Shown here: piece by piece, positions 2,695-14,513 of the stretch
How the letters are laid out: the number at the start of each line of letters is the position of its first letter
How positions within the stretch are numbered: the first letter of the stretch is position 1
Assembly: GCA_025782575.1 (NCBI GenBank)
Contig: JALGYY010000047.1
Span: forward strand, 78,139 to 142,138
DNA: 64,000 nucleotides
DNA from: a bacterium
GTDB taxonomy: Bacteria > Orphanbacterota > Orphanbacteria > Orphanbacterales > Orphanbacteraceae
Direction of reading: 5' to 3'
Program-made: the position numbers and the translations under genes
The notes under the pieces: model-generated
Database searches by the model: none
The model's input: the letters and a program-made list of their open reading frames with translations, nothing else
What the model was told of the DNA's origin: nothing

Positions 2695-3744
2695 CTACTT
2701 AGGGGGCGTGAAAATGAATGGTGCCTTGAAAGTGACGACCCCCTTCGGAATTTCCGGAAACCGCCAACCACGAATCTGTGAGATAGCACAAGCCGCAAGA
2801 TCTTCGGATGCCAGTGTGTTTTCCACCACAGTTGCTTCCAAAACATTGCCGGACGGAGCTACGGTGATTCCTACAACCAGCTTTCCCCGGAGACCCGGGC
2901 TTCGATTCAGCTCATTGTCGTAACAGAATTGGATCCCGGCCGAGTATTTCCGAACTACCGCGAGCAGGGAAGAGTTGCTTCGCCACTCGCCACCTCCGCG
3001 CGTACCCGAACCTGAACCGGCCACGCCACCCCGTCTGCCGCCGGCCCTCCCGCCCGGTGATCCTGGGCCACTGCCCGCTGCCCCTCCCCCAAGATCGTCG
3101 ATGGAGGAAATTGTAATTCGGGAGCTGCCGAGCGCTCCACCGAGTGCAGCTACATCAACCCCTGCGGGGGATCCTGTCGAGGGGGCGCCCGCTTCTCCGG
3201 CGCTCCGACCGGCTCTTACCTGTCTCCGGCGTTCCCCTCGCGATTTGTTCACTCCTTTTCCCTTCCCATCGGCAGATAGAGAGGTGGACAGGTCAGCGAG
3301 TACCGCTCCGAGCGATCCCTTTACGTCGGCGAGTTCTCGGCTTACCAACTGTCTCGCCATGGCCCGCCCCGCCTCGCCTCGCGGAGTCGGTTCGGTCTCC
3401 TGCTTTGCGGTCTTGCGGCCCCCCGCCGGTTTCGCAGACTCCGGCCGAGCGTCAGCGACCGGTTCCGGGTCGGGATTCACCGTCTCAGCCGGCGGCGCGA
3501 TCGCCTTCACTTCAGGCGTGGTCTGCGATTGCACAACCGGTTCCGGTTTCTGAAGAATCAGCCTGGCCAGACGTTCCGGAACAGCTTCGATACTCGCCAC
3601 TTCCATCTCCCGGTTGGGAGTGATGAGAACAATGGCGAGAAACAGCACGCCGGCCGTGGCCGACCAGGAGAGGCACTTTCGGAATCGGGGATCGATCTGG
3701 CCCAATACCGGTTGCCTGTATGGGTGAGGTATGGAAATCACCAT
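2695..3744 (-). CDS. TonB-like energy transducer with AgmX/PglI-type C-terminal domain
   Basis: N-terminal TM segment, Pro-rich then Gly/Arg/Ser-rich linker, C-terminal VVRKYSAGIQFCYDNELNRSPGLRGKLVVGITVAPSGNVLEATVVENTL...WRFPEIPKGVVTFKAPFIF; downstream of TolQ/TolR genes. Confidence 0.82.
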   Translation of the reverse strand: MVISIPHPYRQPVLGQIDPRFRKCLSWSATAGVLFLAIVLITPNREMEVASIEAVPERLARLILQKPEPVVQSQTTPEVKAIAPPAETVNPDPEPVADARPESAKPAGGRKTAKQETEPTPRGEAGRAMARQLVSRELADVKGSLGAVLADLSTSLSADGKGKGVNKSRGERRRQVRAGRSAGEAGAPSTGSPAGVDVAALGGALGSSRITISSIDDLGGGAAGSGPGSPGGRAGGRRGGVAGSGSGTRGGGEWRSNSSLLAVVRKYSAGIQFCYDNELNRSPGLRGKLVVGITVAPSGNVLEATVVENTLASEDLAACAISQIRGWRFPEIPKGVVTFKAPFIFTPPK

Positions 3745-3757
3745 GATCGGGGTCTCC

Positions 3758-4252
3758 TCAGATCTTGATCACCGCGAGCGATATGCTGGCGAACCCGCTT
3801 TGCTGACATGTGTACATCACCTTCTGAAGCACCTGGAACGGGATTTCCCGATCACCCTGGATCGTGATCTGTCCCTCACTGTCGTCATTCGGCGTGCCTC
3901 GAAGCGCCGCGATCTCGTCCTGCTTCTCTTTCGCCTCGGCGAGACGCGCGGCGAGCGGTTCGATTTTCATGCCTGTCCCTTCGATCACTTCCCGCACGGT
4001 AGATATCAGTTCGCTCCCGAGCAGAATGTCCGTCTCGGAGACAGCCACCACAAGAGTGGCTACCGGCTGGTCTTTGCTCGCTGATACCGGAAGCTCTACT
4101 CCCGGTACCGGAGTTACTACCTCTCCTTCCGCCACAAAACTCTTCAACAAAAAGAGAAGCAGCACAGTCAAAATATCCATCATGGAAGTGATTCGGAGCT
4201 TCTGCGGCTTCCCGATATTCCTGCGCTTCCGTTTGCTTTTATGTCGAATCAT
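3758..4252 (-). CDS. ExbD/TolR family biopolymer transport protein
   Basis: KLRITSMMDILTVLLLFLLKSF TM motif and periplasmic domain; adjacent to a second TolR and a TolQ. Confidence 0.9.
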   Translation of the reverse strand: MIRHKSKRKRRNIGKPQKLRITSMMDILTVLLLFLLKSFVAEGEVVTPVPGVELPVSASKDQPVATLVVAVSETDILLGSELISTVREVIEGTGMKIEPLAARLAEAKEKQDEIAALRGTPNDDSEGQITIQGDREIPFQVLQKVMYTCQQSGFASISLAVIKI

Positions 4253-4263
4253 GATCGGCCTCG

Positions 4264-12425: not shown

Positions 12426-12987
12426 CTCCTGACTCCGCGTCAACGACGACGAAGAGGGAGGCCGCGTTCGTTGCTGTGTAGACGAACGCCCATGTCGCTC
12501 TGTTCGGGTTCTTGTCGTGCAGAACGCCACGGACGAGAAGCATCGTGCTCAACTCCCCCTGTTCCTTCATTCTGAATTCGGTTCCCCCATCTTCTTCCGC
12601 GGCCAGAAAGGCCTCGCCGCTGTCGATCCAACGGTCGGGGAGCGGGGGCGCATCAAATACGAAACCGAGGTCGGAAGCCTTCCGGATCTTTCCTCCCTCG
12701 ACCGCATACACTTGATATTTCTCGAGGGACGAAGAGGCGAAGAGATAGCCCCACTGGGAGGCGGATCCGCCCGTGCTGGGCGAGTCATCGTTTTCGATGT
12801 AAATCAGCCGGGCATCCTCGGCCCAGGTGAGGGCCGCGTCCGCGGCGAGGTCGAGACCGTCGCGCGCACTGAAGGGGGGGGAGCCCGCGCTGACCTGGAT
12901 GGCCGACGTTGCGAGTAGCCCCACTCCCGCGAGAACGAGCAGCCCATAACGACGGGACGGCTTCTTAGAGAGCGTATGGACAGACAA
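12400..12987 (-). CDS. Secreted hypothetical protein (PepSY-like character)
   Basis: Signal-peptide-like YGLLVLAGVGLLATSAIQVSA; C-terminal TNAASLFVVVDAESGDVVRKWRG. Confidence 0.7.
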   Translation of the reverse strand: MSVHTLSKKPSRRYGLLVLAGVGLLATSAIQVSAGSPPFSARDGLDLAADAALTWAEDARLIYIENDDSPSTGGSASQWGYLFASSSLEKYQVYAVEGGKIRKASDLGFVFDAPPLPDRWIDSGEAFLAAEEDGGTEFRMKEQGELSTMLLVRGVLHDKNPNRATWAFVYTATNAASLFVVVDAESGDVVRKWRG

Positions 12988-13002
12988 ATTCAGGTCCTCC
13001 TG

Positions 13003-13812
13003 CTAGTAAAGAAATGACATGCCCATGGTGAACACATAGTTTTCGTTTTCCCTCCGAGCGGAACCGGAACCGGATCGGAATCTGTAGTTCCTTAGATCCC
13101 AGCGGAGAGCCACTTTTTTGCTTACATAGAAGAGCGCGCCCGCTCCGTAGTTCGTGCTCGGTTCGGTTTTGCCGCGGAAGATGCTCGATCCGATTCCTGC
13201 GCCGAGGAAGGGGACCACCCGGCGGCCGGGAAGAATGAGAACGTTCGCGTTCATCTCGTAGGTGAGCATGTGAAACTCCTCTTCCTCGAGGGTGAGGTTG
13301 AAGAGAGACTCCACGATTTCCTGGGGCCGGTTGACATGGGTCCAGCCGACTCCTCCCTCGAGTTGGACGAAGTCGAAAAGGTAATAGCCGAGACGCCCGC
13401 CCGCTGTAAGGGAGTTTGACTTTTCGTCGAACGCGTAGCCTCCGACAAAACCGGATAGAACGAAGCTGCCGATTCGCGAGTAGAGCCGTGGATTGGGGCG
13501 GAATTCCAAGCCGGACAGGTCGTCGAATTCGTGGCAGAGTGACGAATGGACCCAAGCTGTTTCCGTTTCGGACAGCCGGATATTGTTCCAGTCGCCACTC
13601 TTCGCGATCACCCGGAACGTCGCCCCCTTTGGAAGAACCGCGGCGATGGCGAAGTGATTGCCTGGTCCGCTTCGAACGACGTTGTGATCTCCATAGGCGA
13701 GCATGACCTTACGGATCGGGCCGCCGGAATCACCCGCTGCCGCCGGCACCGCGGCGAAAATCGATGCGAAAAGCAGTGGGAGGAGAACCAGACAATACAA
13801 ACGTCGCTTCAT
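13003..13812 (-). CDS. SH3b domain fused to outer-membrane beta-barrel
   Basis: Signal peptide, SH3b-like HNVVRSGPGNHFAIAAVLPKGATFRVIAKSGDWNNIRLSETETAWVHSSL, then alternating beta strands ending ENYVFTMGMSFLY. Confidence 0.8.
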   Translation of the reverse strand: MKRRLYCLVLLPLLFASIFAAVPAAAGDSGGPIRKVMLAYGDHNVVRSGPGNHFAIAAVLPKGATFRVIAKSGDWNNIRLSETETAWVHSSLCHEFDDLSGLEFRPNPRLYSRIGSFVLSGFVGGYAFDEKSNSLTAGGRLGYYLFDFVQLEGGVGWTHVNRPQEIVESLFNLTLEEEEFHMLTYEMNANVLILPGRRVVPFLGAGIGSSIFRGKTEPSTNYGAGALFYVSKKVALRWDLRNYRFRSGSGSARRENENYVFTMGMSFLY

Positions 13813-14513
13813 GATCGGTGTTCCCTCTCTTCATGGCTCGTGACGGCGTGCCAGGTCAGGCCGGCCCGAAAGGTCCAGCTGGCGATGGTTTCTCTCCCGG
13901 AAACGATGCTGTTTCCGGCGCGATGGTTTGTCTGGAGCCCGAAAAAATAACGCTCAGCGGAAAAATCGAAGCCGACCGATCGAAACAGGGGACCGTGAGC
14001 GGCGAGGCCCATTCCACTCGTCCATTCGGTGATTGCTTGCAGATCGACGACGATGGGAGGCTCTCCCGCTATTTCATATGTGATGTGGTCGGGCGAATAA
14101 TCGATGCGTAAGAGGCCGACCGATCCCGTTGCCAGAACATCGACTGAAAAGAGCCGGACCACTCCGACTCGTGATGCAAGCTCGATGGCGGAAAGAGAGA
14201 CATCGGGAGAGAGAGCGGTATCGAGTGCTCCGCCTGATTGAACTGTGTTCGCCCGCCAGACCCTGGGACCGGCAGCCCACCTGCCTCGTCCGATCTCCGC
14301 GGCCAATCCATATTGGAGGATCGGGCCTGTATCCCAGCCGTATCGATGAAGCCGGGCGTCCAGATAGAGCGCCCCCGACCAGGGGGTCATGGTGATGCGA
14401 ACAGGAGCCGGTGGCCCTTCTCTCTCCGCAGCTGCAGGCCACGCGAAAAGAAGAGCGGCGGCAAGAGCCGTCAAGGCGGCGCACGATTTTTGAACGGACA
14501 GATAACTCATCAT
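13809..14513 (-). CDS. Predicted outer-membrane beta-barrel protein
   Basis: Signal peptide and amphipathic beta-strand pattern; overlaps the start of the SH3b-barrel gene by 4 nt. Confidence 0.68.
   Translation of the reverse strand: MMSYLSVQKSCAALTALAAALLFAWPAAAEREGPPAPVRITMTPWSGALYLDARLHRYGWDTGPILQYGLAAEIGRGRWAAGPRVWRANTVQSGGALDTALSPDVSLSAIELASRVGVVRLFSVDVLATGSVGLLRIDYSPDHITYEIAGEPPIVVDLQAITEWTSGMGLAAHGPLFRSVGFDFSAERYFFGLQTNHRAGNSIVSGRETIASWTFRAGLTWHAVTSHEEREHRS

What the first reader, a model, noticed from the sequence alone, without database searches (positions are those of the whole stretch)
2695..14513. Candidate Glt/Nfs-like trans-envelope machine powered by a TolQ-TolR-TolR motor
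About ten consecutive, mostly start/stop-overlapping minus-strand genes encode two outer-membrane barrels (one with SH3b), two secreted hypotheticals, a 1609-aa TPR/coiled-coil protein, a TPR lipoprotein, a small secreted protein, TolQ, two TolR and a TonB-like protein with an AgmX/PglI-type C-terminus. Myxococcus gliding/sporulation systems (AglRQS plus GltA-J/NfsA-H) use the same part list: barrels, TPR proteins, a TPR lipoprotein, a TolQR-type motor and AgmX/GltJ-like transducers. Here everything is in one locus. The function (motility, polysaccharide transport or other envelope work) is inference.
Basis: partly seen in the sequence, partly recalled or inferred. Interest (0 to 1): 0.85.

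Follow-up and report, generated by a model that had tools for sequence, protein, structure and literature searches.

The report
Glt-type envelope motor with redox module
The gene block encodes a proton-powered, envelope-spanning machine related to the Myxococcus gliding and spore-coat engine, but here, and in two other bacterial groups, it is joined to genes for outer-membrane heme and flavin-type redox proteins, which gives a testable lead on what this widespread 'core' machine does in bacteria that do not glide.

Summary
The block is one 19-gene minus-strand run (about 21957 down to 2695, coding gaps of about 30 bp or less). It is a genuine Agl-Glt/Nfs 'core complex': GltD (hhalign 100%, E 7e-63), GltE, TolQ-TolR-TolR, AgmX/GltG-type TonB, Nfs-type barrels, a GltF-like peptide, and probably a GltC-GltD fusion. 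Such stand-alone complexes have been known since 2011, with unknown function. What is new is outside the given coordinates. Directly upstream lies an extracytosolic redox module: two c-type cytochrome lipoproteins (one related to hydrazine synthase alpha), TlpA, DUF4266, a DUF3570 barrel and, in relatives, the flavin transferase ApbE. The same order recurs in Krumholzibacteriota, Nitrospirota and Gammaproteobacteria. In 291 gammaproteobacterial genomes, 41 of 42 with this divergent DUF3570 also have the core complex, and 31 of 46 gene copies lie within 25 kb of gltD. For ordinary DUF3570 it is 0 of 47. Best reading: a PMF-driven trans-envelope transducer dedicated to an outer-membrane redox complex. 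Linkage is shown; mechanism is inferred. TolR1 replaces the membrane aspartate by asparagine in 84 of 97 such motors, unlike Myxococcus AglQ/AglS.

The parts
21424..21957 (-). K: secreted/lipoprotein with one c-heme-like motif (CTIAGDCH)
   Evidence: profile match to gammaproteobacterial K proteins 98.3%, E 2e-14; same place in Krumholzibacteriota
20783..21427 (-). O: outer-membrane barrel, OMP_myx_plus type
   Evidence: TIGR04565 3.6e-4; hhalign to Nfs-position barrels 94.6%
18745..20919 (-). H: lipoprotein, TolB-like beta-propeller plus hydrazine-synthase-alpha middle domain, two CxxCH heme motifs
   Evidence: PF18582 1.1e-17, PD40; PDB 5c2v 6e-17, TolB 4e-6; hhalign to gamma H 100%, E 4e-73
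18174..18764 (-). T: TlpA/ResA-like thioredoxin
   Evidence: AhpC-TSA 6e-21; ResA 7e-25
17942..18223 (-). DUF4266: small lipoprotein with C-terminal CxC (ORF; true start near 18175)
   Evidence: sequence; local profile built from the same gene in Krumholzibacteriota and Nitrospirota; named after the description in PMC8238504
16803..18011 (-). U: divergent DUF3570, predicted 16-strand outer-membrane barrel; TSAS in place of the flavinylation motif
   Evidence: PF12094 2.9e-41; AlphaFold pLDDT 86; Foldseek top hits are outer-membrane barrels; motif
15122..16771 (-). N: NHL beta-propeller with FlgD_ig C-terminus
   Evidence: PF01436, PF13860; conserved in Krumholzibacteriota
14538..15251 (-). L: lipoprotein, unknown (ORF; true start near 15117)
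   Evidence: conserved place in Krumholzibacteriota
13809..14513 (-). B: secreted, barrel-like protein
   Evidence: conserved place; no significant match to Nfs barrels
13003..13812 (-). SB: SH3b plus outer-membrane barrel (GltA/B, NfsA/B type)
   Evidence: PF08239, PF13505, TIGR04565 7e-16; hhalign to Nfs-position barrels 96.7%
12400..12987 (-). Z: secreted protein, unknown
   Evidence: no family; conserved place
11577..12530 (-). Y: signal helix, ~68-residue helix, beta domain (ORF; true start near 12404)
   Evidence: homologues directly upstream of gltC in Gemmatimonadota, Nitrospirota and Gamma; model
6751..11580 (-). CD: 1609 aa; residues ~671-1560 = GltD; N-terminal ~650 probably GltC
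   Evidence: hhalign GltD 100%, E 7e-63; N-terminus to gamma fused GltC 87.4%, E 4e-6
5825..6751 (-). E: GltE-like TPR lipoprotein
   Evidence: hhalign 97.5%, E 8e-12
5508..5828 (-). F: GltF-like small secreted protein
   Evidence: place and a shared short motif around G-x-[IL]-x-x-P; not significant by hhalign
4750..5514 (-). Q: TolQ/AglR-type channel subunit
   Evidence: PF01618 6e-23; alignment A2
4264..4737 (-). R1: TolR with Asn in place of the membrane Asp
   Evidence: PF02472; residue counts
3758..4252 (-). R2: TolR with the membrane Asp
   Evidence: PF02472; residue counts
2695..3744 (-). G: TonB-like transducer with AgmX/PglI C-terminus (GltG type, no FHA)
   Evidence: NF033768 1.8e-24; hhalign 99.9%, E 1e-32
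715..2412 (-). PAS histidine kinase, 283 bp downstream; possible regulator
   Evidence: PF02518, PAS; same place in L068
104..718 (-). FixJ-type response regulator; possible regulator
   Evidence: PF00072, PF00196; same place in L068

Best explanation
The locus encodes one machine in two modules. Module 1 is a complete Agl-Glt/Nfs-type core complex: a TolQ-TolR1-TolR2 proton motor in the inner membrane, a TonB-like transducer (G), a small TonB-box-like peptide (F), a TPR lipoprotein (E), a probably fused GltC-GltD periplasmic scaffold, and GltA/B-type barrels. Module 2 is an outer-membrane redox complex: a di-heme TolB-propeller/hydrazine-synthase-alpha-like lipoprotein (H), a mono-heme-like lipoprotein (K), a DUF3570 barrel that in several relatives carries the ApbE flavinylation motif, and a TlpA/DUF4266 thiol pair. 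Most likely the proton-motive force, through G/F and the CD scaffold, moves, loads or opens the outer-membrane redox complex, so that the output is extracytosolic electron transfer (or a metal or cofactor step that depends on it) rather than gliding. Shown: homology of the parts, gene order, and phylum-spanning linkage. Inferred: that the two modules bind each other, that the motor acts on the redox proteins, and the direction of electrons.
For: Core membership: hhalign GltD E 7e-63, G C-terminus E 1e-32, E 8e-12, barrel E 4e-10; order C-D-E-F-Q-R-R-G in KSB1, Calditrichota, Gemmatimonadota, Nitrospirota, Gamma, Myxococcota, with gaps in some lineages. Redox linkage: the K/H-T-DUF4266-DUF3570 block lies directly upstream of Y-C-D-E-F-Q-R-R-G in Krumholzibacteriota, Nitrospirota (L072, L075, L077, L252) and many of the gammaproteobacterial loci read. 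Gamma: divergent DUF3570 in 42 of 291 genomes, 41 of them with GltD; 31 of 46 gene copies within 25 kb of gltD, 20 upstream on the same strand within 6 kb; classical DUF3570, same genomes, 0 of 47 linked. Krumholzibacteriota: 12 of 13 genomes with divergent DUF3570 have GltD, and all 12 GltD genomes have it. H and K are the same proteins in Krumholzibacteriota and Gamma (E 4e-73, 2e-14). The GltD tree puts Krumholzibacteriota and Nitrospirota+Gamma on separate deep branches, so it is not one recent transfer. DUF3570 models as a 16-strand outer-membrane barrel. DUF3570 as an ApbE substrate, and thioredoxin-like/DUF4266/DUF3570/ApbE as a redox cluster: PMC8238504.
Against: No physical interaction is shown between the modules. 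Many core complexes (Gemmatimonadota, KSB1, Myxococcota, a large part of the gamma loci) lack the redox module, so the motor has other clients. Some redox-linked gamma loci lack TolQRR nearby (L195, L196, L203, L213, L214). In the window itself DUF3570 has TSAS, not [ST]GA[ST], and ApbE is elsewhere in the genome (C13:116800), so flavinylation here is unproven. In Nitrospirota only the close GltD copies (G101, G525) are linked.
Confidence: 0.6

Rival explanations
1. TonB-like uptake: the motor and transducer open an outer-membrane barrel to import a metal or cofactor, and the heme, flavin and thiol proteins only reduce or release the substrate at the surface. Output is uptake, not electron transfer.
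For: G is TonB-like and F carries a TonB-box-like stretch; several barrels; Meheust et al. saw 25 DUF3570 clusters with a VIT1 iron transporter (PMC8238504).
Against: No plug-domain TonB receptor among the genes; the DUF3570 barrel model shows no plug domain; large GltC-GltD scaffolds are not part of Ton systems (established knowledge).
Confidence: 0.2
2. Gliding or surface-polymer machine, as in Myxococcus Glt or Nfs; the redox genes serve another purpose in the same operon.
For: Same core parts; in L047 the core complex is followed by genes that read like Wza/Wzc polysaccharide export (sequence only).
Against: No GltI/GltJ-type or polysaccharide-export gene was recognised in the window run; the conserved partner genes in three phyla are redox genes. 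Luciano et al. argue the core alone is not enough for motility (PMC3169522).
Confidence: 0.1
3. Two unrelated systems that share regulation: the operon joins them because both are needed under one redox condition, without physical coupling.
For: A PAS kinase/FixJ regulator pair follows; the modules occur apart in some genomes.
Against: Divergent DUF3570 occurs almost only with GltD (41 of 42 and 12 of 13 genomes), and gene order is kept over deep branches, which mere co-regulation seldom does.
Confidence: 0.1

Closest known systems
Agl-Glt/Nfs stand-alone 'core complex' (Luciano et al. 2011, PMC3169522)
   Same: AglR/Q/S-like TolQ-TolR-TolR, GltC, GltD, GltE, GltG in one locus; an additional gene is found there that Myxococcus lacks, as gene Y is here
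   Different: Described there in Gamma- and Betaproteobacteria, Geobacter and Fibrobacter with unknown function; no redox module reported in the text read; here GltC and GltD appear fused, a GltF-like gene and GltA/B-type barrels are present, and TolR1 has Asn for Asp
Myxococcus NfsA-H with AglRQS (spore coat)
   Same: Order barrel-barrel-C-D-E-F-G; TolQRR motor
   Different: Cargo in Myxococcus is the Exo polysaccharide (PMC3858216); GltG has an FHA domain, G here has none; both AglQ and AglS keep the membrane Asp
Thioredoxin-like/DUF4266/DUF3570/ApbE flavinylation clusters (Meheust et al. 2021, PMC8238504)
   Same: TlpA-like, DUF4266 with CxC, DUF3570, ApbE in relatives
   Different: The divergent DUF3570 subfamily here goes with the core complex and H and K cytochromes; TolQ and gliding are not mentioned in that paper's text
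Hydrazine synthase alpha subunit (PDB 5c2v)
   Same: Middle domain and c-heme motif of H
   Different: H is a lipoprotein with a TolB-like propeller; no beta or gamma subunit gene was recognised; hydrazine synthesis is not implied

Membership tests
Agl-Glt/Nfs core complex | GltD homologue | tested here: met
   hhalign 100%, E 7e-63 over 859 columns
Agl-Glt/Nfs core complex | GltE TPR lipoprotein next to GltD | tested here: met
   hhalign 97.5%, E 8e-12; adjacent
Agl-Glt/Nfs core complex | GltG-type TonB transducer | tested here: met
   NF033768 85.6 bits; hhalign 99.9%, E 1e-32, C-terminal 90 residues only
Agl-Glt/Nfs core complex | TolQ-TolR-TolR motor in the same cluster | tested here: met
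Agl-Glt/Nfs core complex | GltC homologue | tested here: inconclusive
   N-terminal 650 residues of the 1609-aa protein: 80.8% to Gemmatimonadota GltC, 87.4% to gamma GltC-GltD fusions, only 52% to gamma GltC
Myxococcus Glt/Nfs proper | GltA/GltB-type barrels | tested here: met
   SB 96.7% and O 94.6% to Nfs-position barrels
Myxococcus Glt/Nfs proper | GltF | tested here: inconclusive
   same place and motif; hhalign not significant
Myxococcus Glt/Nfs proper | FHA domain on GltG | tested here: not met
   no FHA match on G
Myxococcus Glt/Nfs proper | GltH, GltI, GltJ, GltK | tested here: inconclusive
   no gene of the run was recognised as one of these; barrel B and lipoprotein L remain unassigned
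Myxococcus AglQ/AglS | membrane Asp in both TolR subunits | tested here: not met
   TolR1 has Asn; the M. xanthus pair on C111 has Asp in both
Thioredoxin-like/DUF4266/DUF3570/ApbE flavinylation cluster | TlpA, DUF4266 with CxC, DUF3570 adjacent | tested here: met
Thioredoxin-like/DUF4266/DUF3570/ApbE flavinylation cluster | [ST]GA[ST] motif on DUF3570 and ApbE in the cluster | tested here: not met
   TSAS in window; ApbE elsewhere. Motif met in several gamma loci, ApbE linked in Krumholzibacteriota relatives
Agl-Glt/Nfs core complex | PMF-driven movement or force on outer-membrane parts | not testable with these tools
   needs experiment

The most novel reading that the evidence does not exclude
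A class of PMF-powered envelope motors whose client is a trans-outer-membrane electron conduit: the motor mechanically loads, gates or moves surface heme and flavin proteins, so that extracytosolic electron transfer is actively driven rather than passive.
Probability: 0.3. Interest if true: 0.92.

Novelty: new variant of a known kind. Interest (0 to 1): 0.75.

Why it matters
The stand-alone Agl-Glt core complex is common (62 of 291 sampled gammaproteobacterial genomes carry GltD) and was left without an assigned function in 2011. A tight, phylum-spanning link to a redox module turns 'what does it do in non-gliders' into a direct mutant and pull-down test, joins two literatures that I did not find connected in the held library, and suggests that one proton motor has been fitted with exchangeable outer-membrane clients. 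The conserved one-Asp TolR pair is also a natural test of rotary 5:2 motor models, since AglQ/AglS stoichiometry is unsettled (PMC9389320).

Tried and rejected
NCBIfam equivalog models GltE, GltG, GltJ match only weakly because of shared TPR or TonB parts (23.5, 56, 38 bits against cut-offs 225-650), so homology was tested by profile-profile comparison instead. Foldseek of gene Y against PDB gave nothing under E 0.001. PDB sequence search of the 1609-aa protein gave only CpoB at E 0.006. The Allochromatium TolQ-TolR-TolR-TonB genes Alvin_2249-2252, repressed on pyrite (PMC11267869), sit beside a TonB receptor (Alvin_2248), so they were judged an ordinary Ton system and not used. Barrel B (13809-14513) could not be tied to GltA/B/H. 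A single recent transfer of the whole locus was considered and rejected on the tree. The idea that 'all in one locus' is itself novel was rejected (PMC3169522).
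Full report
WHAT IS THERE. On the minus strand, genes run from about 21957 down to 2695 with coding gaps of roughly 30 bp or less, followed after 283 bp by a PAS kinase and a FixJ-type regulator. In order of transcription: K, O, H, T, DUF4266, U (DUF3570), N, L, B, SB, Z, Y, CD, E, F, Q, R1, R2, G. Promoter-like sites are no more frequent than in shuffled sequence and no terminator-like site clearly divides the run, so 'one transcript' is inferred from spacing only.

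THE CORE COMPLEX. Pfam and NCBIfam give the motor, TPR, SH3b/barrel and AgmX/PglI parts. To test kinship with Glt/Nfs I compared profiles of the window-type proteins with Myxococcaceae and Nfs-arranged homologues read from genomes: GltD 100%, E 7e-63 and 2e-54; G C-terminus E 1e-32; GltE E 8e-12; SB barrel E 4e-10; O barrel E 6e-8. The small 106-aa protein sits where GltF sits and shares a short motif with the Myxococcus-type F, but profile comparison is not significant. The first 650 residues of the 1609-aa protein are probably GltC fused to GltD: other GltD proteins align mostly from about residue 671 on, no separate gltC is present, some gammaproteobacteria have an unmistakable GltC-GltD fusion (E 6e-91), and the window N-terminus matches those fusions at 87%. 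Y is homologous to a gene found directly upstream of gltC in Gemmatimonadota, Nitrospirota and Gammaproteobacteria; it may be the 'additional gene' of Luciano et al. (PMC3169522), which I could not check. Its model is a signal helix, a 68-residue helix and a beta domain.

SPREAD. A scan with a GltD alignment returned 416 relatives, 80 kept. Maps of these and of loci from other genomes show (C)-D-(E)-F-Q-R1-R2-G in KSB1, Calditrichota, Gemmatimonadota, Nitrospirota, Krumholzibacteriota/Eisenbacteria, Gammaproteobacteria, Myxococcota and Bdellovibrionales, with the motor missing from many Myxococcota copies. The closest loci to the window are MAGs labelled Eisenbacteria, Krumholzibacteriota and Gemmatimonadetes; the host belongs near that set, its name was not given.

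THE REDOX MODULE. H is a lipoprotein with a TolB-like propeller, a hydrazine-synthase-alpha middle domain and two CxxCH motifs. K is a small mono-heme-like lipoprotein. T is TlpA-like, DUF4266 ends in CxC, U is DUF3570. Meheust et al. (PMC8238504) describe thioredoxin-like/DUF4266/DUF3570/ApbE clusters and show DUF3570 flavinylation at [ST]GA[ST]; TolQ and gliding do not occur in their text. The same block directly precedes the core complex in Krumholzibacteriota, with ApbE at its head in several (L247-L251), in Nitrospirota (L072, L075, L077, L252) and in many gammaproteobacterial loci. H and K match their gamma counterparts at E 4e-73 and 2e-14.

HOW TIGHT. In 291 evenly drawn genomes of one gammaproteobacterial class, GltD is in 62 and DUF3570 in 70. 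Split by score, 46 divergent DUF3570 genes (80-160 bits) lie in 42 genomes, 41 of them with GltD; 31 lie within 25 kb of gltD. Of 47 classical ones, none does. The cut of 160 bits was set after seeing the list, and the Fisher value (4e-33) ignores kinship. In 79 genomes of the Krumholzibacteriota-type phylum, 12 of 13 with divergent DUF3570 have GltD, and all 12 with GltD have it. In Nitrospirota only the close GltD copies are linked. A FastTree tree of GltD separates Krumholzibacteriota from Nitrospirota plus Gamma by deep starred branches, and the linked state needs 11 changes; L065, a short contig, was counted as linked by kinship. So the association is old, or repeatedly gained, and not one recent transfer.

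FLAVIN. Several gamma DUF3570 proteins carry ISGAS at one site; Krumholzibacteriota have TTAS or TSAS, Nitrospirota SSAS. In the model (pLDDT 86) this site lies in a helix-bearing loop between strands 3 and 4 of a 16-strand barrel, and the best Foldseek matches are outer-membrane barrels. The host has one ApbE gene elsewhere. Flavinylation of the window protein is therefore open.

THE MOTOR. TolR2 keeps the membrane Asp; TolR1 has Asn at that place. Of 97 core-complex pairs, 84 are Asn/Asp: all 4 Krumholzibacteriota-type loci, 3 of 3 Nitrospirota, 21 of 21 KSB1/Calditrichota-type, 50 of 51 Gamma; Gemmatimonadota are Asp/Asp, as is the M. xanthus pair on C111. If TolR1 and TolR2 form the central pair of a 5:2 motor, only one side can carry protons. 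This is inference; whether AglQ and AglS form hetero- or homodimers is itself unknown (PMC9389320).

HOW IT PROBABLY WORKS. Shown: parts, order, linkage. From established knowledge: TolQR-type motors use the proton-motive force; Glt/Nfs complexes reach from inner to outer membrane, GltA, GltB and GltC bind each other (PMC4488436), and Agl moves Nfs and its cargo (PMC3858216). Inferred: here the same transducer acts on an outer-membrane redox complex. I rate membership in the core-complex kind at about 0.95, the two modules forming one functional unit at about 0.8, and motor action on the redox proteins at about 0.6.

LIMITS. No expression or interaction data exist here. The held paper library is open-access only, so 'not found' does not mean 'unpublished'.

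Noticed in passing
G000:C13:411001-431000 (L064): The host genome has a second core complex (C-D-F-Q-R1-R2-G) without the redox module.
   Followed up: partly
L213, L214 (gammaproteobacterial loci): A protein with 26-27 CxxCH motifs lies near a redox-linked core complex that lacks TolQRR nearby; L176 has one with 17.
   Followed up: no
L157, L158, L175, L199, L200, L202: Another cytochrome set (about 400 aa with one CxxCH, about 840 aa mostly with two), often with ApbE, stands beside or opposite the core complex; in L119 the pair matches PSD2 and laminin-G domains.
   Followed up: partly
L047 9898-14554: Genes after a core complex read like Wza/Wzc polysaccharide export, a different client module; judged from sequence only.
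   Followed up: no
L043, L057: Core complexes of two loci lie directly beside what read as ATP synthase genes (by sequence, not tested).
   Followed up: no
L177, L181, L191, L193, L204: Clear GltC-GltD fusions in gammaproteobacteria (E 6e-91).
   Followed up: yes
window 104-2412: PAS histidine kinase and FixJ-type regulator after the run, conserved in the near relative L068 but not seen in L067.
   Followed up: partly
window 52189-54867, 58523-60655, 62530-63927: Other secreted proteins whose C-terminal ends look like the FlgD_ig tail of the NHL protein; seen by eye.
   Followed up: no
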